The notes below the pieces were generated by a model. It saw only the letters and a program-made list of their open reading frames with translations, was not told where the DNA came from and did no database searches. Made by a program: the position numbers and the translations under genes. DNA of 35,859 nucleotides from a bacterium (GTDB taxonomy: Bacteria; Pseudomonadota; Alphaproteobacteria; Rhizobiales; JAKIUO01). The stretch lies in NCBI GenBank assembly GCA_024228495.1, contig JAAETJ010000298.1, forward strand, positions 1 to 35,859. The letters run 5' to 3'. Positions 237 to 13,211 of the stretch are shown in pieces (within the stretch, counting starts at the first letter, position 1; each line of letters begins with the position of its first letter).

Positions 237-428
237 TATATTCCCGGACCCGCTCCCCGTTCCCTTTCCAACTTATCGCATCACGGTCCGAGCCCCGGGT
301 ATTTGCAGGAAAAAGAAATCACTTATGTGCTGCGGGTCTATTGCAGGTCGGGTCGTTTTGATGAAACCAAAGCGAAAAAACTGGCGTTCAATATAGTGCG
401 TAAGGATGAGCGCTGGAAAAAGCTTTGA
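237..428 (+). pseudogene. Possible 3' remnant of an unidentified gene
   Basis: The frame ending in TGA at 426-428 reads like genuine protein in its last 42 codons (from 303), with a charged lysine-rich end (RFDETKAKKLAFNIVRKDER). It is closed upstream by a stop at 234-236 and has no ATG or ribosome binding site. It therefore looks like the tail of a gene whose 5' part is lost. The family is not recognised. The overlapping 72-codon frame from 178 has a composition unlike protein and is treated as spurious. Confidence 0.25.
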
Positions 429-446
429 CTGACATGATGAGCGCTT

Positions 447-2222
447 TTATTTCCAGAGATTGTCGATCATCGTAAGCAGTATATCCTGCCGCTCGGCGAT
501 GTCATTCAAGGACCAATCACTCATATTTTTCAAGGTATTGGTGAAATGTATAGGGTGATCGGCATTGTTCTTGAAAAGGATTGCATACTTGTCGGGAAAG
601 TCGGAATTTTTCATTAGCCTGTTTTCGCTGTCTTTACGCACCAGAAACAGATTGCCGAACAATTGAGTATTATATTTGCGCAGTTTTTCATCGGGAAAAT
701 TCGCAAGCCATTGACTGTTTTGCTCGGGACTGAGTGGCAAGAGATGCTCGACCGACAATGCTTCAGTTTCCATCAACTGATTATAATAGCTGACCGGCCT
801 GCCGGTTTCCTCCATATCAAGACGCAACAAGAGCAGCTTTGCCGCTACCGGTCTGGTCTGATGCATGTTACGCTCGATCGTATTGCGGACAATACGTTTT
901 TCAGCGGCTGACAATTCAACAACTTTGAACGGGTCCTTGCCATATTGCTGATCCCTCAATGCCCGCTTTAGCGGATTATATTTTTTCTTGCGATCTGGGG
1001 CACCACCCTTCATGACCAATAGTCCATAAGCAAGGCGTTCAAGCTTTTTAAAAAATGCCAAAGCTTGCGCAGGATCATTTCTATATCTGGTGATTGCCAA
1101 CATGGCCGGTGCGATCCAGTCATCATGGGGTAACCAGTTCAGAGTGCCAAAAATACGGTCCAGTTCGTGCTTGTTTTCCTGGTCAGGCCAGTTGGCCTCA
1201 TTGATGATGTTATAGGCATCCACATTGGGAATGATGTGATTTTCGATGAACGGTATTGCCCCACCGGCCTCGTCGATCATCTTGCGAAAATCGGCAAGAA
1301 GGTTGACATGGTCGGAGGTCAGGACAAAGCGGAAATGATTGAAAAAAGTTTTCTTTTGGCTTGAAGCCTTGCTACGCATAGTGCCAAGACTATCATTCCA
1401 CTGCTCCCAGATCGGGCGGTATTTTTCCACATATTCTGCACTTAAACTAGCCATCAACTCGACCTTTAATATGTCGCCTTCCGTGAGCTTTGTGCCGCTA
1501 TCATTGATGGATAAAAAGATCTGGAATGCATGATCGATTTTCTCCGATAAGATGATCACCACCTGACAATGATCGACAATATAGCCAAGCAGTCTGGTGC
1601 GGTCAGTTGCTGACAGATCAAGCAGGTTTCGATGCAGGCTGTCACGCACTTTGATCATATTCTCCTCACCTGTAGAGATATTGTCCAGATCAGGGACAGG
1701 ATTAATCGAGGATCCAAGTGTTAGCACATGCTTATGCAGGAATGCACCTTCTCCGCCGCAAAGGTCCAATCGGTACTGATTGTTGTCGCGACCGTCTCCA
1801 ATCAGGTTTTTGAGTGAGGGAAGATCCCCACTACTAGAGAGGTCGCGTAGTAGACAAAGAAGAATTGTCAAGGTGACAAGGCGCTGTTTGCCGTCGACAA
1901 CATCGAAATCTCCTTTGATATTGTCTGGGAGGCCAGCTTGCCCAGATATAATGGACGTAAAGGCGGCAGCAAGTTTTCCAGCAAGCGGTCGTTTTGCTGT
2001 CTCAGCCATATTGCCGGTGAGGATCAAGGCGCCAAGAAAGAAGCTTTCAATCTGGTTTTGTTCATGTTCTTCCCCCATTGCCTCGACAATATCTTCAAAT
2101 AGCTTGGTGCTTTGATCATTGGACCAGGAAAAGGCGCGTTGGTAAATCGGGATTGTGTAAGAGAATCTGCGGTCAAAGAGTTTTTTGAGAAGAATGGCAT
2201 GGGAAACAAATGAAGTGGACAT
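447..2222 (-). CDS. DUF262/DUF1524 protein (GmrSD-like)
   Basis: The predicted protein has 591 aa. The N-terminal DUF262 region shows IPIYQRAFSW at residues 24-33 and DGKQR at 110-114, a variant of the family DGQQR motif that belongs to the ParB/Srx-like nucleotide-hydrolysing fold. The C-terminal DUF1524 region starts at VEHLLP with His493, followed by conserved Trp and Asn residues of the His-Me-finger nuclease type. This two-domain layout is that of GmrSD-type type IV restriction enzymes, which cut modified phage DNA, and of other defence proteins. The start is taken as ATG at 2222; an in-frame TTG lies two codons upstream inside a tandem repeat, and no strong Shine-Dalgarno is seen for either. 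It stands alone, with no methylase or partner nearby. Its restriction activity and modification specificity are inferred only. Confidence 0.85.
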   Translation of the reverse strand: MSTSFVSHAILLKKLFDRRFSYTIPIYQRAFSWSNDQSTKLFEDIVEAMGEEHEQNQIESFFLGALILTGNMAETAKRPLAGKLAAAFTSIISGQAGLPDNIKGDFDVVDGKQRLVTLTILLCLLRDLSSSGDLPSLKNLIGDGRDNNQYRLDLCGGEGAFLHKHVLTLGSSINPVPDLDNISTGEENMIKVRDSLHRNLLDLSATDRTRLLGYIVDHCQVVIILSEKIDHAFQIFLSINDSGTKLTEGDILKVELMASLSAEYVEKYRPIWEQWNDSLGTMRSKASSQKKTFFNHFRFVLTSDHVNLLADFRKMIDEAGGAIPFIENHIIPNVDAYNIINEANWPDQENKHELDRIFGTLNWLPHDDWIAPAMLAITRYRNDPAQALAFFKKLERLAYGLLVMKGGAPDRKKKYNPLKRALRDQQYGKDPFKVVELSAAEKRIVRNTIERNMHQTRPVAAKLLLLRLDMEETGRPVSYYNQLMETEALSVEHLLPLSPEQNSQWLANFPDEKLRKYNTQLFGNLFLVRKDSENRLMKNSDFPDKYAILFKNNADHPIHFTNTLKNMSDWSLNDIAERQDILLTMIDNLWK

Positions 2223-2224
2223 AT

Positions 2225-2275
2225 ACAAGGGCTCAACAATTACAAGGGCTCAACAATTACAGGGACTCAACAATG
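2225..2275. repeat. Three tandem 17-bp repeats upstream of the DUF262 gene
   Basis: The unit ACAAGGGCTCAACAATT occurs perfectly at 2225-2241 and 2242-2258. A third degenerate copy (ACAGGGACTCAACAATG) lies at 2259-2275. The array abuts the start codon on the minus strand and so forms its 5' leader. It could be iterated binding sites or a slippage-prone expression switch. There are no spacers, so it is not CRISPR. Confidence 0.85.
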
Positions 2276-2563
2276 AGGATAGGTTACCGTACGAGATGAG
2301 CAAGCGGGGTGAGGGTGAAAAATATCAATCCTTGTATGGAACGCTGGAATTTCAATTTTTGTGCGAATATTTTGTCCCTAAAATGTAACCAGCTTTCAAA
2401 AATCTCGCAACTTAAATCGGATCCTCAAGGCAATAAATTTTATTCGTTAAAAATAGTATCTTACACATCAATCTTTCCAGATATTGGGGGGGTTAGGATT
2501 AGAAACCTAGAAGTCGTGGATCCTTGCAAACAGGGTTTGCTTGTTTGGCTAGCGTCGGTGAAC
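2276..2563. other. AT-rich gap between the DUF262 gene and the repressor gene
   Basis: No credible gene is seen in this stretch. It contains a small perfect hairpin (GCAAAC-agg-GTTTGC at 2526-2540) followed by a T-rich run on the plus strand. That would be a weak terminator reading rightwards, though no plus-strand gene precedes it. The promoter of the DUF262 gene must lie here or inside the repeats, but no clear -35/-10 pair was identified. Confidence 0.4.
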
Positions 2564-3202
2564 CTATTGGCTGGCCCAGATGATGCGTGCGATCCAGTCA
2601 AGCTCTTGAAGCGTGAATGACAGAGTTTGATGTTCGGGGTTAAGGGAGTAAAGTTCGATCTGCGTTGCTGTTTTTCGCAACAGCTCTTTTGCCAGAACCT
2701 GCCCTTCCAGTGTTTTGACGATAACCCGGTCATGACGCCGGATTTCTGAGCCAGGAGAGACGATCAGGATATCCCCTTCGCGGTACATTGGCTCCATCGA
2801 GTTTCCAGACACCTCAAGAGCGTAGGCATTTTCGTCGCGAATTTCGGGAAATTTAACCAGATCCCAACTGCCACCAACCGGGAATCCACCATCGTCAAAA
2901 AAACCTCCGACGCCAGCCTGGGCAAAACCAATGAGAGGGATGGGCGTAGTGTGACCGGGGGTCTCGCCGCCAGCGGTTATGACAAGGCGGGAAAAATCAT
3001 CAAAGCTGGCGTTTGTCGCCTCTAATATTTTTGCAATGCTTTCAGTGGAGGGCCAGCGTGGTTTCCCGCTTGCTGTCGTGCGTTTTGATTTATTGAACGT
3101 GGTAGGGTCCAGGCCAGCTTTTTTAGCCATGCCCGAAGGGGTCAAGCCATTTTTGCTGGCGAGCGCTTCAATTCCTGTCCAGATTTGCCAGTGTGTCAGC
3201 AT
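2564..3202 (-). CDS. LexA/CI-like S24 repressor with N-terminal HTH
   Basis: The protein has 212 aa from ATG at 3202; an in-frame TTG lies immediately upstream. Residues about 5-70 form a Cro/C1-type helix-turn-helix domain (GLTPSGMAKKAGLDPTTF). The C-terminal half is an S24 peptidase domain with the nucleophile serine in SGNSMEP (Ser135) and the general-base lysine in LAKE (Lys172). An Ala-Gly pair in FAQAGVGG near residue 97 is the likely self-cleavage site. Proteins of this kind repress target promoters and cut themselves on RecA activation or another stress signal. It is divergent from the gene at 3280, with a palindromic site between them. No phage structural genes are visible, so this may be a chromosomal or domesticated regulator. 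Confidence 0.85.
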   Translation of the reverse strand: MLTHWQIWTGIEALASKNGLTPSGMAKKAGLDPTTFNKSKRTTASGKPRWPSTESIAKILEATNASFDDFSRLVITAGGETPGHTTPIPLIGFAQAGVGGFFDDGGFPVGGSWDLVKFPEIRDENAYALEVSGNSMEPMYREGDILIVSPGSEIRRHDRVIVKTLEGQVLAKELLRKTATQIELYSLNPEHQTLSFTLQELDWIARIIWASQ

Positions 3203-3250
3203 CAAGATACACCATTTGGATAAGTTGATAATCGTTCGCGATGGGGATAA

Positions 3251-3268
3251 ATTCCCATTAATAGGAAT
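3251..3268. promoter_or_regulatory. Palindromic operator candidate
   Basis: ATTCCCATTAATAGGAAT is an 18-bp near-perfect palindrome, with 16 of 18 positions symmetric. It sits in the 77-bp gap between the divergently transcribed S24 repressor (start 3202) and the secreted protein gene (start 3280). Its position and symmetry fit an operator for the neighbouring repressor, perhaps with autoregulation. That assignment is inferred. Confidence 0.5.
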
Positions 3269-3279
3269 ATAGGCAGTAG

Positions 3280-3918
3280 ATGATTAAGATGTCCATAAAA
3301 ATACCGGCTGGCGATGTTCGAGATACCAATAAACTCTGGTCGCAATGGCTGTTCCCATTTTTATTTATTGTCGCCATATTGATCGCTGGCCTGTCAGCAA
3401 GCACGCCGGGGATAACGCAAGAAAAAAGCGAGGTGATTATCCGGATCGATCAGTTGCCACTTCGTGTCAGGCGGATGCATCAAGCGTTAACGCGCGCGGT
3501 CCGCAGCGGCAATGTTGAGAAAATGCGCCAAGTTTTGCAAATCAACGAACTTATGCCCTTGATCAACGGCCGGTTTATTCACGATCCTATCAAGTATTGG
3601 AAGGCTCAATCCCCCGATGGCAGCGGTCGCGAAATCCTGGCGGCTTTATCCGAGATTTTGGAGCTGCCTCCCGTAAAGGTCACGGTTAAACGACAAGCGA
3701 TTTATATCTGGCCCTATTTTGCGGTCGTGCCGCTCGATAAACTTTCATCAAGCGAGTTGGTACGGTTCTATCGGTTGGCACCGGCGAATAAAGCAGCGCA
3801 AATGTTGAAGAATAATCGCTATAGGCACACCCAAATGAACGTTGGCGCTGATGGCACTTGGCATTCTATAGAGATCGCGCTTGATCACTTGCTCGAAAAA
3901 CCGCCACAAAAGCCATAA
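3280..3918 (+). CDS. Conserved hypothetical membrane-anchored or secreted protein
   Basis: The protein has 212 aa. One hydrophobic segment at about residues 22-44 is an uncleaved signal anchor or a signal peptide, so the remainder should be periplasmic. The pattern GREILAALSEILEL (about 117-130), IYIWPYF (141-147) and PLDKLSSSEL (151-160) resembles, from memory, a family of uncharacterised secreted alphaproteobacterial proteins; this was not checked. No enzymatic motif is recognised. The start ATG at 3280 has a weak AGG six bases upstream, and ATG at 3289 is an alternative. It precedes the RND adaptor by about 195 bp on the same strand, so co-transcription is possible. Confidence 0.7.
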   Translation: MIKMSIKIPAGDVRDTNKLWSQWLFPFLFIVAILIAGLSASTPGITQEKSEVIIRIDQLPLRVRRMHQALTRAVRSGNVEKMRQVLQINELMPLINGRFIHDPIKYWKAQSPDGSGREILAALSEILELPPVKVTVKRQAIYIWPYFAVVPLDKLSSSELVRFYRLAPANKAAQMLKNNRYRHTQMNVGADGTWHSIEIALDHLLEKPPQKP

Positions 3919-4100
3919 AATGCTCCTATAGTGCCATCAAGCATGTCGGGCCATTGAATGCCCCCTCAAAATTGCATACTTCTTGCAAAAGAATATGTGC
4001 GCGCCACAAAATGCGACCCAATCGTGTTGTACGATCGTAAGGATTGTACGCAATTACCATCATAAAACGAGGCTTTTCATCGTATGTACCGCGTTTTGTC

Positions 4101-4106
4101 AGGAGG
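4101..4106 (+). promoter_or_regulatory. Shine-Dalgarno deciding the TTG start of the RND adaptor
   Basis: A perfect AGGAGG lies six bases before TTG at 4113-4115. The longer open frame from 4044 would place this site inside the coding region, and no comparable site precedes 4044, so TTG is the likely start. Confidence 0.8.
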
Positions 4107-4112
4107 AAAGAC

Positions 4113-5666
4113 TTGTCCGCTAGAACCCCCATATCGCGTATTTTCTTGGGCGGATTGAAGGTAGCTTTACCGGTTTTTGCGTTGTTCGTCGGGATCTATT
4201 CCTATCTGACGCTAAAATCTAATCGGCCGCCGTCTCCCAAACCGCAAAAACACGAGACGGTGCAGCCCGTGCGCACCATGTTGATCCACCTCTCGTCGCA
4301 TCAGCCAGCATTAAAACTTTATGGAGAAATCAAGTCCGGGCGCAAACTCGAATTACGCACCCTGGTGGCTGGCAAGGTGTTTGAAACCGGTACTCGGTTT
4401 CGTGAGGGAGCGCTTGTAAAAAAAGGCGATCTGTTGTTCTCAATCGATCCGTTTTCCTATAAGGGCGCGGTGGTTGAGGCCAATGCCAATATGGTTGAGG
4501 CACGGGCCCGTTTGAAAGAAAATACCGTCCAGACCAGAGCAGAAGAAACCAGCATCAGATATGCGGTTGAGCAGCTCAGGATCGCCAAGCGAGATATGGA
4601 GCGCGCGAAAAAACTAATGAGGAAGGGGTCGGTTACTCGTCAGGGAGGAGATCAGCGGGCACTGATCGTCTCGCAAAGACGCCAGACCCTAGATTCCAAG
4701 CGCGCAAATCTTGCGATCCTGCGCGCCAAGGCTGAACAACAAACCGCAAATATTAATAGTTTGAAATGGCGCCTCCAGCAGGCCCGGCGTAACCACCGTG
4801 ACACGCAATTGAAAGCCCCCTTTAGCGGTTATATCAATGAGATCAATGCTAATGTGGGGAAGCTGCTCAATGTTAATGACCGGGTGGCCGTGCTGCTCGA
4901 CGCCGATTGGATGGAGGCGGTTTTTACACTTTCCGATCGTCAGTATGGACGGTTGCTTGCGCCCTCAAGTAGCGAACCGACAGGACAAAAAATAAAGCCC
5001 TCAGGAAAAAAAGCGGTAGGGCAGCAAGAGAATGCCAGGGAGGGGCTGATCGGGCGACAAATTAAAGTCACCTGGAAGCTGGGGGCAACCTATCTCACTT
5101 ACAATGCTGTTGTGGAGCGGATTGGTGCGCGGATCTCCTCGGAAAGTGGTGGTGTTAAAGTGTATGCCCGATTGCTAAACCCCTCATACCCGCAACCGAT
5201 CAGAGATGGGGCCTTTGTTGATGTTAGAGTGCCCGACCGGCTCTATCACAAGGTGGCACGCTTGCCTCAAACGGCCCTTTATGGACGTTCCAAAGTCTAT
5301 ATTGTGGGATCAGATAAAAGACTGAGAGAACGGCTTGTAAAACTACACGCCATTGACGGTGAATTTGTGCTTGTCAGTGGTGCTCTGGCAGACTATGAGC
5401 GCGTTGTGGTGACGCGTATGTCGGTGATCGGCGGCGGCATGAAAGTAAATGATCTAGATGTGTCTTCTGGTCCATCAAATAAGTCGGGAAATTCGGGTAC
5501 ATCGAGTGATGCCAAACCCCGCAACAAGAACAGTTGGAAACCAATCAAGGGGGACGGAAGCGCCAGGCACCCAGGCGCGCGGCGTCAAGGTAATCAAGGG
5601 AACCAGGTCAAGAAACCCAGAGACCGGAGCAGTCTAAGCCGTGCGGAGCAAAAAAACCGTGGCTGA
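4113..5666 (+). CDS. RND efflux periplasmic adaptor (HlyD/membrane fusion family)
   Basis: The protein has 517 aa. A membrane anchor spans about residues 14-34. It is followed by the first half of a barrel-sandwich (biotinyl-lipoyl-like) domain, a long charged alpha-helical hairpin (about 115-235), the second half-motif LKAPFSGYINEINANVGKLL, and beta-barrel and membrane-proximal domains. The role is to link the inner-membrane pump encoded immediately downstream to an outer-membrane channel; no TolC-type gene is in the window. Unusual features are a polar insert near 285-312 and a disordered, lysine/arginine/asparagine-rich tail of roughly 65 residues, making it much longer than usual adaptors (about 350-420 aa). 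Its 3' end overlaps the pump gene, which indicates translational coupling. Confidence 0.88.
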   Translation: MSARTPISRIFLGGLKVALPVFALFVGIYSYLTLKSNRPPSPKPQKHETVQPVRTMLIHLSSHQPALKLYGEIKSGRKLELRTLVAGKVFETGTRFREGALVKKGDLLFSIDPFSYKGAVVEANANMVEARARLKENTVQTRAEETSIRYAVEQLRIAKRDMERAKKLMRKGSVTRQGGDQRALIVSQRRQTLDSKRANLAILRAKAEQQTANINSLKWRLQQARRNHRDTQLKAPFSGYINEINANVGKLLNVNDRVAVLLDADWMEAVFTLSDRQYGRLLAPSSSEPTGQKIKPSGKKAVGQQENAREGLIGRQIKVTWKLGATYLTYNAVVERIGARISSESGGVKVYARLLNPSYPQPIRDGAFVDVRVPDRLYHKVARLPQTALYGRSKVYIVGSDKRLRERLVKLHAIDGEFVLVSGALADYERVVVTRMSVIGGGMKVNDLDVSSGPSNKSGNSGTSSDAKPRNKNSWKPIKGDGSARHPGARRQGNQGNQVKKPRDRSSLSRAEQKNRG

Positions 5667-8600
5667 AGCAGTCGATAATTCAAAAGGTTCAAGAGATCAG
5701 GGCGCTCACAAGCTGATTTCCATGTTCGTGAGCCATCCAACCGCAGCCAATCTGATGATGGTGCTGATAGTGATCGCTGGTATGTTTGCGCTTGGCAAAT
5801 TGAACACGCAGTTTTTTCCAACCTTCAGTGTCCCCAATATTTCCATAAAAGTATCCTGGCCGGGTGCCAGTGCTGCGGATGTGGAAAGCACAATTATCGA
5901 CGCGCTGGAGCCGCAGTTACGTTTTCTCGATGGTGTCGATGGTATTGGTGCGGTGGCTCGCGAAGGCTTTGCAACTATTGGCATCGAGTTCATTCCATCG
6001 ACAGATATGCAAAAAGCGCTGGGGGATGTGCAACAGGCCGTGGACGGGGTCACTACATTGCCTGCTGATGCCGAAGCGCCGGTGATTGCACGTATCCAGC
6101 GCTATGACCGTGTCGCCAATATGTCTGTTTCTGGTCCCTATAGCGAGCAGGCCATTCGCAGTTTTGCCAAAACTATTCGCGATGGTCTGCTAAATGCCGG
6201 TATCGACAAGGTTGATTTTGTGGGGATGCGAGATCCCGAAATCGAAATCCGCGTCAAAGATCGCGACCTGCGCCGCCTCAAGCTGACGCTTGATGATATT
6301 GCCAAAAGAATAAACGAGGATAGCCGCGATTTTCCTTCAGGCATACTGGAGGGGGCGGTGGAGCGACAATTGCGCTCGGTGGCCGAGCGCAAAACCCCGG
6401 AGACCATTGGTCAGGTTGAAGTGCGTTCAGATAAGGCAGGCAATATAATTGTGCTGCGTGATATCGCAGATCTCGCCGAGCGCTTTGACGAGAGCAGCTT
6501 GGTGGGGCTTAAAAACGGCCAACCGGCGATTGAGCTGATCATCCGTCGCAGCCTCAAGTCAGACACGCTCAAGTCGCTGGAAATCTTGCGCAAATATATC
6601 ACGCAGATCCGCCCGACCCTGCCGTCCAATTTGCAGGTGGAGCTCTATAATGTGCGCGGTGATCATGTGGTCAATCGCCTCAATATCTTGATCAAGAATG
6701 GTGCGCAAGGGCTGATCCTTGTGTTGGTCATATTGTTTTTGTTTCTCAATGCACGTATTGCTTTTTGGGTAGCGGCCGGTATTCCCGTTGCCTTGATGGC
6801 GACATTTTCGGTGATGTATTTCACCAGCCAGAGTATCAATATGGTGTCCATGTTTGCGCTTATCATGATGCTTGGCATTATCGTTGATGATGCAATTGTG
6901 GTGGGGGAACACACAGCCACAAGACAGGGTAGGGGAGATACGCGCCTTGAGGCCTCGATTGCGGGAGCGGGGCGCATGTTGACGCCGGTGTTAGCTGCCA
7001 CCTTGACCACCATGGCCTCATTTCTCCCCATGATCCTCATTAGCGGGCGGCTTGGCGATATTATGGGCACGATGCCACAGGTCGTGCTGGCGGTGCTGAT
7101 CGCCTCGGTTATTGAGTGCTTTTTTATTCTGCCGGGGCATTTGCGTCATGGCTTTGGTAAAATGCAGGAAAAACCGGGGCGCTTTCGTAGCTGGTTTGAC
7201 GGACATTTTGATCGCTTTCGAGAGGGGCCGTTCAATTGGTTCGTGACGTTCTCTTATAATTGGCGCTATTCGACGCTGACCCTGTCGCTGATTTCCATGT
7301 TCATTGTCATCGGCCTTATAGCTGGGGGCCATATACATGTGCGCCGCTTCCCCTCGCCGCCGCCTGAACAATTGCGAATGAGTGTTGAATTTGCGGTGGG
7401 CACGCCCCGCGACCAACAGATCAGCGCCCTGCTTGAACTCGACCGCTCCTTGTATCGTGCTGAAAAGAAAGTAGCCGGTACAAAAGGCACGTTTATCACA
7501 TCAAGCTTCACCACCATTGGCTCCATTGGGCGTGACCGCGGCGATAATCTGGCCGAAGTGGAAGTGCAATTGACCTCAAGCGAAACGCGCTCGAAACCAA
7601 GCCGAGTAGCGCAATACTGGACGCGTTTAACGGAGGCCAGAGAGCAATCTGGTGAACAAAGTAAAAAGGGCGCATTGACGGCGCGCCGATTCATTCGTGT
7701 CTGGCGAGAATTACGACCAAAGATTGCTGGCGTGGAGCGTTTGACCCTGTCAGCCCAGCGTCATGGTCCAGGTGGCAAGGATGTGCATATCCAGCTGACG
7801 GGTGGCACGGTGCAGCAAATAAAAAAAGCTGCCGAAGCATTGAAGCCCCTATTGGCCGAGTTCCCTGGCATCTCGGCGGTGGAAGATGATCTGCCCTATG
7901 GCAAACCCGAACTTGTTCTGGAATTGACGTCACGCGGGCGAGCCCTTGGTTTTACTGCTCAAAGTGTTGGCACCAAGGTGCGCAACGCTTTTCAAGGGGC
8001 GATTGCGATGCGTTTTGCGAGGGATGACGAGGAAATTACCGTGCGCGTCAAGCGAGAGCAAAAGACGCGCGGATTGGGGGTTCTGGAACAGCTTTATCTG
8101 CGCAGCCTCGCCGGTGTTAGCGTGCCACTGACAGAGATTGTTTCTATTACCGAAAAGGCCGGCTTCTCGATCATCAAGCATGATGAAGGTCAACGCATTG
8201 TCTCGGTGACAGCTGATCTTGATAGCGATCAAATGGAGGTGCCGCAGCTCACCCATGAGCTCGACACCAAGGTGATGCCGCAGATCATGGCCGACTATGG
8301 GGTGCGCTACGACTATTCGGGTGCTGCCGAAGAGCGCAAACGAAATTTCAAGGATATGAAGAAGGGGGCGCTCGTGGCTCTGGCGCTCATCTATATTATT
8401 CTGGCCTGGGTGTTTGGTCATTACGCCAAGCCGTTGGCTGTGATGGCGATCATTCCCTTTGGTATTGTCGGTGCCGTTTTTGGTCATATGATCATGGGCA
8501 CTAATTTGACCATGATCAGTATGATCGGCCTGCTCGGCCTGTCAGGGATTCTGGTTAATGACAGCATCATTCTTGTCTCCACTGCCACGGAGAGGCTGGA

Positions 8601-8895
8601 TCGAGGGCAAAATATGATGGCTGCTGCCATCGGCGCTTCCAAGGACCGCTTGCGCGCTGTGGTGCTAACCTCGCTGACGACGATTGTTGGCCTCACCCCT
8701 TTGATGTTTGAAACCAGCCGCCAGGCGGCGTTCCTGATCCCCATGGCTATCACAATGGTATTCGGCCTGCTCACAGCCACCATTCTCGTGCTGGTGCTTG
8801 TACCAAGCCTGCTGGGCATTGGCCGCGACCTTGGTCGTATTGGCAGATGGATCATTGATCTCTACCGCACCCCGAAGCCGCAAGCGGGGGAGTAG
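5641..8895 (+). CDS. RND efflux pump, inner-membrane permease
   Basis: The protein is about 1084 aa, with the RND architecture of two repeats each holding one TM helix, a large periplasmic domain and further TM helices. The paired aspartates of TM4 are present in GIIVDDAIVVGE (Asp416/417 from this start), as needed for proton-coupled transport. In TM10 the motif is GILVNDSIIL rather than the lysine-bearing AcrB form, which points to a different RND subfamily. Substrate is unknown. The start is uncertain: GTG at 5641 gives a 26-bp overlap with the adaptor, while GTG at 5659 is preceded by GGAG at 11 bases and gives an 8-bp overlap. The pump and adaptor form a two-gene operon; the outer-membrane partner must be elsewhere. 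Confidence 0.93.
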   Translation: MRSKKTVAEAVDNSKGSRDQGAHKLISMFVSHPTAANLMMVLIVIAGMFALGKLNTQFFPTFSVPNISIKVSWPGASAADVESTIIDALEPQLRFLDGVDGIGAVAREGFATIGIEFIPSTDMQKALGDVQQAVDGVTTLPADAEAPVIARIQRYDRVANMSVSGPYSEQAIRSFAKTIRDGLLNAGIDKVDFVGMRDPEIEIRVKDRDLRRLKLTLDDIAKRINEDSRDFPSGILEGAVERQLRSVAERKTPETIGQVEVRSDKAGNIIVLRDIADLAERFDESSLVGLKNGQPAIELIIRRSLKSDTLKSLEILRKYITQIRPTLPSNLQVELYNVRGDHVVNRLNILIKNGAQGLILVLVILFLFLNARIAFWVAAGIPVALMATFSVMYFTSQSINMVSMFALIMMLGIIVDDAIVVGEHTATRQGRGDTRLEASIAGAGRMLTPVLAATLTTMASFLPMILISGRLGDIMGTMPQVVLAVLIASVIECFFILPGHLRHGFGKMQEKPGRFRSWFDGHFDRFREGPFNWFVTFSYNWRYSTLTLSLISMFIVIGLIAGGHIHVRRFPSPPPEQLRMSVEFAVGTPRDQQISALLELDRSLYRAEKKVAGTKGTFITSSFTTIGSIGRDRGDNLAEVEVQLTSSETRSKPSRVAQYWTRLTEAREQSGEQSKKGALTARRFIRVWRELRPKIAGVERLTLSAQRHGPGGKDVHIQLTGGTVQQIKKAAEALKPLLAEFPGISAVEDDLPYGKPELVLELTSRGRALGFTAQSVGTKVRNAFQGAIAMRFARDDEEITVRVKREQKTRGLGVLEQLYLRSLAGVSVPLTEIVSITEKAGFSIIKHDEGQRIVSVTADLDSDQMEVPQLTHELDTKVMPQIMADYGVRYDYSGAAEERKRNFKDMKKGALVALALIYIILAWVFGHYAKPLAVMAIIPFGIVGAVFGHMIMGTNLTMISMIGLLGLSGILVNDSIILVSTATERLDRGQNMMAAAIGASKDRLRAVVLTSLTTIVGLTPLMFETSRQAAFLIPMAITMVFGLLTATILVLVLVPSLLGIGRDLGRIGRWIIDLYRTPKPQAGE

Positions 8896-9640: not shown

Positions 9641-9729
9641 TATCGTTAGCTGACATGGGCTTATCGATAGACTGGGTGCCTGCTTTGGTGTAAATGGTTA
9701 TGATCGATAAACCTATCCAAGGGATTGAC

Positions 9730-11244
9730 ATGTCGCGTAAAAATTATGCCCAAAATCGACTGGCGAGACTGAAAGAACATCTTCAGCATGAAAACTCGGA
9801 CCTCATGGAAGCGGTTGACAGCTATAGTGAGATGGACCTGATCGCTTGGCGCATGGGTCTTTTGCCCCGTGGTATTTCCTATGCTAACCATATTTCCTGG
9901 TGGCCGCTGGTGTCTATTCTTGGAACATTTAGCGCCGGTAAATCGAGTTTCATCAATACCTGGCTGGGTAAGGACGTGCAGCGCTCTGGTAATCAGGCTG
10001 TGGATGATCGCTTTACAGTGCTTTCATATGGTCCTGACAAAAAGGTGAAAACTCTGCCTGGACAAGCGCTTGATAGCGATCCGCGTTTTCCCTTTTACCA
10101 GATAAGCAAGGATATTGAGAGCGTTTCACCTGGAGATGGTAATCGCATCGACAAGTTTTTGCAGATGAAAGTTGTGTCATCTGAAGTGTTGCGCGGCAAG
10201 CTGGTCATTGACAGCCCCGGTTTTGATGCCGACGAGCAGCGCAAATCGACCTTGCGCTTGACCAAACATATTGTGCGCCTAAGTGATCTGGTGCTGGTGT
10301 TTTTTGATGCCCGCCATCCTGAAAGCGGTGCCATGCAAGACACGCTCAAACATCTCGTGGAAGAGCATGTGGACAGCATGGATAGCGAGAAATTCATCTA
10401 TATTCTCAATCAGATCGATACCTCGGCTGCTGACAATAATCTTGAAGACATCGTTGCCTCATGGCGTTCATCGCTGGCGCAAAGGGGCTTGTCGGCGGGC
10501 AAGTTCTACGTCTATTTTAATGATGAGATTGCGGTTCCCGTTGAAGACAAGAATGTCTGGAGCACCTATAAACACAAGCGCGACCAGGATCACAAGCTGA
10601 TCATGGGGCATCTTGACGAGCTTAACACTGTGCGCACTTATCGCATTGTCGGCAATCTCAAACTGCTGGCTAATGATATAGAAGGCGATGCCATTCCGCG
10701 TCTTAAAGTGGCCCTAGGAAAATGGCGCAATAGTGTACGCATTACAGATCTTGTCTTGCTGGCATTGATCGGGCTGATTGCTCTGATTGTCTGGTTTAAA
10801 ACCGGTTTTGTCCTCGCCACCTGGAAGCTACTGGCGCTGCTCGTAGGAGCTGCCGGCTCGTTCCTTGGTGTTCATTATCTGGTACGGCGCGGTTTCGCCT
10901 CCCTATATAATAAGGGCCTTGGCGATGAGGATGTTGGTGATCTGGGCGCAGCGTTTGACAAAAATACCAGATGGTTCAGATCCGTCTGGTTGCGCCGTAA
11001 TCCTGTTGGCTGGAGTACTGGTGTAAGGCGTAAACTGGATCGTATCCGCAATAAAACCGAGCAAATGATCGAATTTCTTAATAGCAAAAATTCCGATCCA
11101 TCAGGACGGCTGTCAGATGTGCTAGGTTCCACATCGAAAGTCAAGTCGCTGAGTGATTCGCCAGAGGTGCCCAAGCCGGTCTCGTCAACTCAGACTGTAG
11201 AAAAAAACCTGGATAATGGCAGCGGCAAGCACAAAGTCGACTAG
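9730..11244 (+). CDS. Membrane-associated dynamin-like GTPase
   Basis: The protein has 504 aa. The dynamin-type GTPase motifs are in order: P-loop GTFSAGKS (65-72), switch-I threonine in DDRFTVL (Thr96), G3 DSPG (161-164) and G4 NQID (227-230). Two hydrophobic helices at about 338-356 and 364-384 form a membrane hairpin, followed by a basic, serine-rich C-terminal tail. Bacterial dynamin-like proteins act in membrane remodelling, repair or phage-stress tolerance; the specific role here is unknown. ATG at 9730 is preferred because AAGGGA lies five bases upstream, whereas the ATG at 9694 has no such site. The gene stands alone and begins about 90 bp after the IS debris. Confidence 0.85.
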   Translation: MSRKNYAQNRLARLKEHLQHENSDLMEAVDSYSEMDLIAWRMGLLPRGISYANHISWWPLVSILGTFSAGKSSFINTWLGKDVQRSGNQAVDDRFTVLSYGPDKKVKTLPGQALDSDPRFPFYQISKDIESVSPGDGNRIDKFLQMKVVSSEVLRGKLVIDSPGFDADEQRKSTLRLTKHIVRLSDLVLVFFDARHPESGAMQDTLKHLVEEHVDSMDSEKFIYILNQIDTSAADNNLEDIVASWRSSLAQRGLSAGKFYVYFNDEIAVPVEDKNVWSTYKHKRDQDHKLIMGHLDELNTVRTYRIVGNLKLLANDIEGDAIPRLKVALGKWRNSVRITDLVLLALIGLIALIVWFKTGFVLATWKLLALLVGAAGSFLGVHYLVRRGFASLYNKGLGDEDVGDLGAAFDKNTRWFRSVWLRRNPVGWSTGVRRKLDRIRNKTEQMIEFLNSKNSDPSGRLSDVLGSTSKVKSLSDSPEVPKPVSSTQTVEKNLDNGSGKHKVD

Positions 11245-11828: not shown

Positions 11829-13211
11829 CTATTGTGCCTTGCAGCGCTTTTTATTTTCCCATAGTTGGATCAGTTTGACATTCATGTGTTCCACTGGTTT
11901 TTTTAAAATATCCGAGCTGGTGGTATTGCATGTCGCATTGTTGAAATACTGAATACCTAATGGCGTGACAAAACAATAGCCGTTGCGATCATAGATTTCA
12001 TTGCGCGCCCGCCATAACTCCAGACAGCTTAATGTTTTGATCTGCCGGGGAAGGATTGGCTTTCTTGAACTGTCGTGAAAGATCGGCTTATTGTCTCGCA
12101 CCCCCACTTTGATGAGCGGTAGTGCAGAGGGCGTGATCGCATTTTGGTTCTTTGTCGCGCCCATCCTGGATCCCGCAAAACTGGCAAAGTTTGTACTCAG
12201 CATGTTAAAGTTGAGAAAGCTGGCCTGCATGATCGTGGGTTGTTTGTTTAAGTCGAGCGCACCAAATTTTTGAATTTTCTGTTCTGCGCTCGTCTTAAAC
12301 TTTCCTTGCGGATAGACCTGCAGATAGATTTTGAAAGCCGAGGAATTGGTATTGTTCTTGATGCTGCTCCAGAACAGTTCTTCGTCGCTCTTTTTCTTCT
12401 CGTGAAAAAAGAACTTGCCAAACAGGCGGTCCACATAAAAGGGAGCTTGGCTCTGGTTCTGTACTTTGGCTTCAACGGTATTGAGTACGCTCAACTGGAT
12501 GTTTTTGGCAAGTTCCGTCAATTCGAGATCGGGATTGTCCAGCTGTTCTAGCAGGCTACGGGTAAAGACAGAATTATTGTTCGTATCATCGGCGCCAAGG
12601 CTGTCAAAGGCTTCCTGGCCCTCATCAGCAGAATACATGATAAAGGTGCCGCGCCGCGTTTCGCGAATGGGCACAAGCCCTCTTGTCAGGCCCCCGATGG
12701 CTCTGGTTTTCTTACTGGCTTTAAAGGGATTATTGCGACAGGCATCCAGGATCATAATGGTAGTCTGTGCGCCGCGCCCCCGGATCATATCGAGAATTTT
12801 TTGTACGTCGAATCCTTCAAAACGCACATATTCCTCTTCAATACCGCCGGTGGCTGGAATGTCGGTGGCCAGCAGCAGGTTGGAGCGGTCAATTTGCACA
12901 CCGTGGCCGGCATAAAAGAACACGACCTTGTCGCCAATGGAGATACGGCTGGCGAGGTCCTGAATTTTTTGCACCATTTGCCGGCGCGTAAGATTAGTCC
13001 CCTGAATGACCTCAAAGCCAAGCGCGGTAAGTTTTTTGTCTAGCGCCGTTGCATCATTGACGGCTTTTTGCAGACTGGGAACGTCGGCATAGGAATCATT
13101 TCCCAGCACCAGTGCGAGGCGTTTTTCGGCAATGGCGGATGAAATGAAACCAGATGTGCCAAGTGCCAGACAAAGCGTCGACGTGGCTAAAATCCTTTTA
13201 AAAGTCCTCAA
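11829..13211 (-). CDS. Secreted caspase-like (peptidase C14) protein
   Basis: The protein has 460 aa. A signal peptide (about 1-28, cleavage after AIA) exports it to the periplasm or beyond. Residues about 30-265 form a caspase p20-like domain, with the catalytic histidine in YAGHGVQ (His103) and cysteine in LDACRNNPF (Cys158). A helical segment with FWSSIKNNTNSSAFKIYLQ follows, common after this domain in alphaproteobacteria, and then an unassigned C-terminal region with four cysteines. Related proteins cleave after basic or acidic residues; the substrate here is unknown. The start is TTG at 13211, supported by GAGGGAG seven bases upstream. The gene converges with the small membrane protein gene and follows the PhnA-like gene on the same strand. 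Confidence 0.85.
   Translation of the reverse strand: MRTFKRILATSTLCLALGTSGFISSAIAEKRLALVLGNDSYADVPSLQKAVNDATALDKKLTALGFEVIQGTNLTRRQMVQKIQDLASRISIGDKVVFFYAGHGVQIDRSNLLLATDIPATGGIEEEYVRFEGFDVQKILDMIRGRGAQTTIMILDACRNNPFKASKKTRAIGGLTRGLVPIRETRRGTFIMYSADEGQEAFDSLGADDTNNNSVFTRSLLEQLDNPDLELTELAKNIQLSVLNTVEAKVQNQSQAPFYVDRLFGKFFFHEKKKSDEELFWSSIKNNTNSSAFKIYLQVYPQGKFKTSAEQKIQKFGALDLNKQPTIMQASFLNFNMLSTNFASFAGSRMGATKNQNAITPSALPLIKVGVRDNKPIFHDSSRKPILPRQIKTLSCLELWRARNEIYDRNGYCFVTPLGIQYFNNATCNTTSSDILKKPVEHMNVKLIQLWENKKRCKAQ

What the first reader, a model, noticed from the sequence alone, without database searches (positions are those of the whole stretch)
447..3202. DUF262/DUF1524 (GmrSD-like) protein next to an S24 repressor
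A solitary candidate modification-dependent nuclease carries the DGQQR-type and His-Me-finger motifs. It sits beside a LexA/CI-like self-cleaving repressor transcribed on the same strand. The pair resembles a stress-switchable defence module, in which damage or phage entry would release expression. DUF262 partners of this kind are only partly described.
Basis: partly seen in the sequence, partly recalled or inferred. Interest (0 to 1): 0.5.

Follow-up and report, generated by a model that had tools for sequence, protein, structure and literature searches.

The report
CI-like repressor paired with GmrSD nuclease
In a group of alphaproteobacteria, a gene for a DNA-cutting enzyme of a phage-defence type sits directly behind a gene for a repressor related to the phage lambda switch protein, with a matching conserved site between them, which suggests (untested) that the repressor keeps the enzyme switched off until it is needed.

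Summary
Both genes are real. The nuclease (NUC, 447-2222, minus strand) is a single-chain GmrSD protein; its predicted fold is nearest to DndI and SspE, and its key residues are conserved. The repressor (REP, 2564-3202, minus strand) has the lambda CI/LexA fold with an intact Ser/Lys dyad and Ala-Gly site; it is not LexA. The pair is adjacent in 5 of 5 genomes of the genus. It is also adjacent in 4 genomes of a distant genus, where the repressor's protease looks dead. Across the order REP is common (280 of 397 genomes) and lay near pyrD without NUC in 13 of 15 neighbourhoods fetched. Distant NUC relatives sit at that same pyrD-lysK slot in 21 genomes, 20 of them without REP. An operator motif learned from REP promoters of 25 other families predicts a site, TAGGTTTCTAATCCTA, between REP and NUC. 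It is identical in 4 of 5 species, is the longest conserved block of that gap, and has no equal before 28 other NUC homologues. This supports repressor control of the nuclease. Binding, self-cleavage, inducibility and phage defence are untested, and no SOS box was found. Verdict: new variant of a known kind (repressor-controlled GmrSD enzyme), moderate interest.

The parts
447..2222 (-). NUC: single-chain GmrSD (DUF262 + DUF1524) protein, candidate modification-sensing nuclease (ORF 447..2228 with a TTG two codons upstream of the probable ATG)
2564..3202 (-). REP: CI/LexA-like XRE-S24 repressor; Ser136/Lys173 dyad and Ala97-Gly98 candidate cleavage site (numbered from the TTG at 3205)
2494..2509 (-). 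Candidate REP operator TAGGTTTCTAATCCTA between REP and NUC; identical in 4 of 5 genus genomes
   Evidence: matrix from other families; only strict-pattern match in the 5.1-Mb own assembly; longest conserved block of the gap
3241..3258 (-). Candidate REP auto-operator ATGGGAATTTATCCCCAT (matrix core 3242-3257), just downstream of REP's -10; a weaker match to the matrix (9.9) than the NUC-side site (13.5)
3252..3267 (-). Overlapping inverted repeat TTCCTATTAATGGGAA touching REP's -10
   Evidence: direct reading
3266..3295 (-). Candidate REP promoter TGGACA-N18-TATATT (10 of 12 consensus bases; the scan found 10 sites in 4.2 kb against 5.9 in shuffles)
2382..2410 (-). Candidate NUC promoter TTGCGA-N17-TACATT, in blocks conserved in 4 of 5 genomes; found by eye, not listed by the scanner
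3280..8895 (+). Divergent genes: 212-aa protein of unknown family, HlyD-type protein, AcrB-type RND transporter; the first two lie next to REP in 5 of 5 genus genomes, the transporter in 4 (the G003 contig ends there)

Best explanation
REP is a lambda CI/LexA-like autorepressor whose dimer binds inverted repeats of the type TAGG-N8-CCTA. In this genus it has been coupled to NUC, a GmrSD-type nuclease, by gene order and by a second operator placed between the two genes. While REP is intact, transcription from its own promoter and onward into NUC is held low, either directly or by looping between the two operators about 750 bp apart. When REP cleaves itself at Ala97-Gly98, or is otherwise inactivated, REP and NUC are made, and NUC uses NTP-coupled recognition by its DUF262 domain and its HNH domain to nick or cut foreign or modified DNA. 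Shown by sequence: both genes and their catalytic residues, conserved adjacency, the operator motif and its second copy. Inferred: binding, repression, cleavage-driven release, DNA target and defence role.
For: Adjacency, same strand, in 5 of 5 genus genomes; three different downstream flanks but a constant REP-NUC junction. REP dyad and cleavage site conserved in 31 orthologues: Ser 31, Lys 30, Ala-Gly 30. Operator motif found de novo in 25 non-genus REP upstream regions: log-likelihood 148.4 against at most 36.5 in 20 shuffled sets. That motif ranks the REP-NUC site first in 12.7-20 kb in three genomes and third in the 36-kb window; shuffles of each gap reach it 5-9 times in 1000. The strict pattern occurs once in the 5.1-Mb own assembly and once in G004, each time here. 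It is the longest conserved block of the gap, 18 bp against 9. Nothing above 5.9 lies downstream of REP in 25 other-family loci, nothing above 8.2 upstream of 28 other NUCs; the site scores 13.5. The genus NUCs fall, with modest support, among NUCs of the pyrD-lysK slot, REP's usual home.
Against: One genus member (G003) keeps the pair without the site. REP's own auto-operator in four genus members is a weaker match to the matrix (9.9; 20-42 of 1000 shuffles reach it). The site lies 84 bp upstream of the best NUC promoter candidate, so plain occlusion does not fit well. The second clade that keeps the pair has a REP without the Lys and the Ala-Gly site, and no site above 7.2 around it. 20 of 21 slot NUCs have no REP, so NUC works somewhere without it. 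The strict pattern also occurs at chance level (0-3 places per genome; reversed control 0-2). Two stretches of coding DNA in the window outscore or approach the site (16.5 and 14.3). No binding, cleavage or phage data exist.
Confidence: 0.45

Rival explanations
1. Inherited neighbours only. REP and NUC come from one ancestral pyrD-lysK neighbourhood and stayed adjacent; NUC is expressed from its own promoter. The inner TAGG-N8-CCTA site is an auxiliary operator for REP autorepression or part of an RNA end, and does not control NUC.
For: A candidate NUC promoter lies between the site and NUC. Most NUC homologues found live without REP. G003 and the four genomes of the second clade keep the order without a comparable site. 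The site can also be read, by eye, as a short GGTTT...AAACC hairpin in 3 of 4 sequences (alignment).
Against: A site of this strength appears in 4 genomes with REP next to NUC and in 0 of 25 other REP downstream regions. The junction survived changes of the downstream flank.
Confidence: 0.35
2. REP in this genus is mainly the switch of the divergent RND efflux operon, and NUC is a passenger behind it.
For: The 212-aa and HlyD-type genes lie divergent to REP in 5 of 5 genus genomes and the RND gene in 4 (contig end in G003), and the auto-operator lies between REP and that block.
Against: In 15 non-genus REP neighbourhoods no RND relative is adjacent; one lies about 6.5 kb away in L060. The second operator is on the NUC side.
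Confidence: 0.12
3. REP protects the cell from a self-toxic nuclease: NUC behaves like DndI, which damages cells lacking phosphorothioate marks, and REP is a safety catch, not a damage sensor.
For: Closest solved relatives are DndI and SspE; DndI is toxic in unmarked cells (PMC11662687, passages); no dndC match in 5 of 5 genus genomes.
Against: NUC homologues persist without REP in 20 slot genomes; a protein of the same architecture, PFLU4242, is not toxic without the plasmids (PMC8544851, passages).
Confidence: 0.08

Closest known systems
GmrSD family type IV restriction enzymes (Eco94GmrSD, BrxU)
   Same: Single chain, DUF262 with D-G-x-Q-R, DUF1524 with (D/E)-H...N...N; BrxU 7p9m is among the fold matches (Z 12.6, rmsd 19.6 over 410 residues)
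   Different: No restriction or BREX family among the 22 window ORFs scanned by Pfam other than NUC itself; DNA target unknown; at most about a third identical to the nearest relatives found outside the genus
DndI and SspE, phosphorothioate-sensing nucleases
   Same: Best fold matches (7dri Z 21.6, rmsd 4.8 over 334; 9jfl Z 20.2, rmsd 7.2 over 514) and best PDB sequence match (9jfl E 1.5e-8); the P-x-Y-Q stretch is present (by eye)
   Different: No dndC match in 5 of 5 genus genomes
lambda CI / LexA (S24) repressors
   Same: Fold, Ser/Lys dyad, Ala-Gly site
   Different: Not LexA: 23.9 bits against a cut-off of 110.95, and the genome has another LexA; no phage family among the window ORFs scanned; operator TAGG-N8-CCTA
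BrxR (WYL) and RptR, repressors of defence islands with type IV or type I restriction enzymes (PMC9122601, PMC12255303)
   Same: A repressor controls restriction genes encoded beside it
   Different: Other regulator types (no S24 mentioned in RptR paper; BrxR is a WYL protein); REP is widespread in its order with its own usual locus
PFLU4242 of Pseudomonas fluorescens (PMC8544851)
   Same: Solitary chromosomal DUF262-DUF1524 protein; reacts to plasmids and sets off SOS
   Different: Under GacA/S; no adjacent S24 repressor mentioned in the passages read

Membership tests
GmrSD family | DUF262 and DUF1524 in one chain above curated cut-offs | tested here: met
   98.9 and 52.1 bits against 33.2 and 23
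GmrSD family | DGxQR nucleotide motif and (D/E)H...N...N nuclease motif conserved | tested here: met
   33 homologues; 31 of them
GmrSD family | Cleavage of modified DNA | not testable with these tools
   needs biochemistry
DndI/SspE phosphorothioate-sensing systems | Fold of DndI/SspE | tested here: met
DndI/SspE phosphorothioate-sensing systems | Companion modification genes (dndC as marker) | tested here: not met
   TIGR03183 0 of 5 genus genomes at E 0.001 (the search rang in 5 of 14 control genomes, none over the cut-off); ssp genes not searched separately
S24 LexA/CI-like repressors | HTH plus S24 fold | tested here: met
   HTH by Pfam below cut-off; linker 79-117 mostly low confidence
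S24 LexA/CI-like repressors | Ser/Lys dyad and Ala-Gly scissile site | tested here: met
S24 LexA/CI-like repressors | RecA-stimulated self-cleavage | not testable with these tools
   needs biochemistry
LexA orthologue / SOS regulon | NCBIfam lexA cut-off; SOS box GTTC-N7-GTTC (box recalled, not from a call) | tested here: not met
Prophage or mobile defence island | Phage or mobile-element genes around | tested here: inconclusive
   no phage or mobile-element family among Pfam hits of 22 window ORFs; not all ORFs were scanned, no PHROGs search was run, and the contig ends 446 bp beyond NUC

The most novel reading that the evidence does not exclude
An old alphaproteobacterial chromosomal CI/LexA-like repressor, outside the SOS regulon and normally resident at a pyrD-lysK slot, has been wired to a type IV-like nuclease as a self-cleavage-released immune switch. 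The slot may be a long-standing address where this repressor and DNA-acting enzymes (GmrSD here, SNase-domain proteins in some other families) replace or join each other.
Probability: 0.25. Interest if true: 0.68.

Novelty: new variant of a known kind. Interest (0 to 1): 0.5.

Why it matters
How solitary type IV restriction enzymes are kept from harming their host is poorly known. A repressor of the lambda CI type, with a predicted operator that can be tested in one gel-shift, would offer a simple inducible-immunity switch. The REP-or-NUC pattern at one chromosomal locus gives a natural experiment across families.

Tried and rejected
SOS control: no GTTC-N7-GTTC or GAAC-N7-GAAC in the REP upstream region or the REP-NUC gap of 5 genomes. 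Hidden small gene in the gap: a frame of 28 codons (MFAQ...) is open in G002 and G004, has no ATG in the window, stops after 12 codons in G001 and was not found in G003; not claimed (sense strand only). Phosphorothioate system: no dndC match. Other strict operator sites, two in G001 and one in G002, are not shared; by my reading of neighbouring frames one lies inside a coding frame and two on contigs with recombinase or conjugation-like genes, so no wider regulon is claimed. A general repressor-plus-nuclease rule at the slot was considered: of four genes behind REP that were scanned, two pass the SNase cut-off, one is below it and one has no hit, and a fifth is TonB-like; too uneven to claim. 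NUC of G444, G454, G488 and G511 shows no REP or pyrD within 1.5 kb. L079 and L080 NUCs sit in type I RM operons by my reading of neighbour proteins. NCBIfam gave no family for NUC. The genome-contig scan returned one relative. BrxU was not among the 50 rows listed by Foldseek but appears in the second look.

Not in print: the searches listed no paper whose title or abstract start describes an S24 repressor paired with a GmrSD enzyme. The lists were capped where long, the library lacks most subscription papers, and two of the four papers holding both GmrSD and LexA were not opened.

Full report
What is there. The window is the whole of contig C297 of an unnamed 5.1-Mb, 1254-contig assembly. 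A record titled 'MAG: Alphaproteobacteria bacterium isolate Dive100_bin1.47' holds a NUC of 82% identity on a contig of the same length as the genus genome G001's. NUC (447-2222, minus) is a GmrSD_N + GmrSD_C protein; PADLOC profiles Orf5, HEC-06 and SspE match it. REP (2564-3202, minus) is a Peptidase_S24 protein. Divergent from REP are a 212-aa protein without a family, an HlyD-type protein and an AcrB-type transporter.

Are the motifs real. In 33 NUC homologues the DUF262 residues D112, G113, Q115, R116 are invariant, and the nuclease residues E494, H495, N526, N536 are kept in 31-33. An AlphaFold model (mean pLDDT 82.9) matches only DndI 9jfl and SspE at E under 0.001 in Foldseek. In VIA-align: SspE 7dri Z 21.6, rmsd 4.8 over 334; DndI Z 20.2, rmsd 7.2 over 514; BrxU Z 12.6, rmsd 19.6 over 410. 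REP's model (mean pLDDT 78.5, linker 79-117 mostly under 50) matches lambda repressor and LexA. Among 31 REP orthologues Ser136 is kept in 31, Lys173 in 30, Ala97 and Gly98 in 30; the exception is G636. The genome has a separate LexA above its curated cut-off.

Who has what. In 61 genomes (own and relatives) REP matches in 49 at E 0.001, 40 of them under 1e-20 (the 40 being my count of the listing). NUC of 63% identity or more occurs only in the five genus genomes, always directly behind REP on the same strand, with gaps of 335, 273, 302, 246 and 293 bp. In an order-wide sample of 397 genomes REP (E up to 1e-25) is in 280 and NUC (E up to 1e-20) in 33; both in 10. The 33 divide, by context within about 1.5 kb, into 5 of the genus, 21 at a pyrD/DUF952/lysK slot, 4 elsewhere (G444, G454, G488, G511), 1 of unknown context (G019, near a contig end) and 2 whose locus was not fetched (G682, G735). 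In a class-wide sample of 385 only two other genomes pass E 1e-40.

One slot, two occupants. Of 15 non-genus REP neighbourhoods fetched, 13 have pyrD and DUF952 near REP, directly adjacent in 12 and 2.6 kb away in one, and none holds NUC. The 21 slot NUCs stand in that same place, and only one of those genomes (G636) has REP. Fisher's exact test on the 397 genomes gives p 1e-10, but 17 of the 21 are from one family (f2), so the independent evidence is nearer five families. In family f2 a search of 103 genomes found REP in 9. The four from genus g387 have REP directly before an open NUC frame; three are at the pyrD slot, and the fourth's contig ends beside REP. The four g419 genomes whose downstream side could be read have REP at the slot without NUC within 1.5 kb; the fifth is cut. 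The f2 REPs, eight full ones and one partial, lack the Lys and the Ala-Gly site in their translations. The best operator score around eight of them is 7.2 (one upstream region too short to test). In the tree the genus NUCs lie in a 25-row set of 19 slot NUCs, 5 genus NUCs and G019's (support 87/92), and in an inner set with f2 slot NUCs (82/85); both are modest, two slot NUCs (G696, G005) fall outside with the NUCs of other contexts, and the program warns of long branches. In the genus, pyrD sits with an ArsC-family gene in 5 of 5 genomes, with no REP, NUC, DUF952 or lysK found within 1.5 kb in all five, nor in the 11-14 kb stretches fetched for four. The simplest reading is that REP and NUC shared the slot in an ancestor, that one or other was lost in most lines, and that the genus moved the pair beside an RND operon. 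That history is inference.

The operator. A palindromic 16-mer was sought de novo in up to 200 bp before REP in 25 non-genus loci: TAGGAATATATTCCTA, log-likelihood 148.4; 20 dinucleotide-shuffled sets reach at most 36.5. I had looked at these regions by eye first, and had fixed width and symmetry. With this matrix the site TAGGTTTCTAATCCTA in the REP-NUC gap scores 13.5, in the lower half of the training sites (5.3-18.6). It is first in L052 (20 kb), L054 (20 kb) and L056 (12.7 kb), third in the 36-kb window, and absent in G003. Gap shuffles reach it in 8, 5, 6 and 9 of 1000; these are not independent, the species being related. REP's own site in the same four genomes scores 9.9 (reached by 20-42 of 1000 shuffles), in G003 13.9 (2 of 1000). 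The pattern TAGGWWWNWWWWCCTA occurs once in the own assembly, once in G004, at two places in G002, three in G001, none in G003; reversed controls give 0-2. In the alignment of the gaps an 18-bp block around the site is the longest run identical in four species, the next being 9 bp. The best score downstream of REP in 25 other loci is 5.9, one region being only 63 bp long; before 28 other NUCs it is 8.2.

How it may work. REP would repress itself through the sites at 3241-3267, which touch its -10. The inner site lies about 750 bp downstream, 84 bp before a promoter candidate for NUC that the scanner did not list. So REP may act by looping, by blocking read-through from its own promoter, or on a promoter not yet seen. 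The intact dyad and Ala-Gly site make self-cleavage the likeliest release, but the trigger is not shown.

What is known. GmrSD enzymes and their neighbourhoods were surveyed in PMC4619093 (passages): type I RM, helicases, integrases and HTH regulators are enriched; 'repressor' and 'LexA' do not occur in the text held. BrxU: PMC8565348 (passages). DndI: PMC11662687 (passages). Regulators of defence islands: BrxR, PMC9122601 (passages) and RptR, PMC12255303 (abstract, outline and passages). PFLU4242: PMC8544851 (passages). The review PMC12707154 (passages) describes C proteins and repressors of restriction systems; 'LexA' does not occur in the text held. PMC13373217 (listing, and a search in the text without hits) describes DNA-damage control of immune operons by a kinase and a repressor.

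Verdict. The regulatory half of the interpretation has gained independent sequence evidence; the stress-release and defence halves remain plausible and untested.

Noticed in passing
window 2224-2274: A 17-bp unit in three copies just upstream of the NUC start codon; the three other species that carry the operator site show one copy, so it looks like a local expansion in this genome.
   Followed up: partly
window 291-416 (+): A 42-aa piece (79-81% identical) of a 1193-aa protein that in G001 and G002 lies beyond an Fe-ADH gene and a 147-aa gene downstream of NUC; those two genes gave no convincing match in the window, so the flank looks deleted or rearranged.
   Followed up: partly
window 11829-13211 (-) and 9694-11244 (+): A caspase-like Peptidase_C14 protein with a YARHG domain, and a dynamin-type GTPase, close to each other.
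   Followed up: no
L115-L122 (family f2): REP orthologues that lost the S24 Lys and the Ala-Gly cleavage site while keeping the HTH region.
   Followed up: partly
L059 8465-9139 (-), L065 10003-10791 (+): In some other families the gene directly behind REP carries an SNase domain just above the Pfam cut-off.
   Followed up: partly
L091, L095, L098, L100, L101: Tandem second NUC copies at the pyrD slot in family f2.
   Followed up: no
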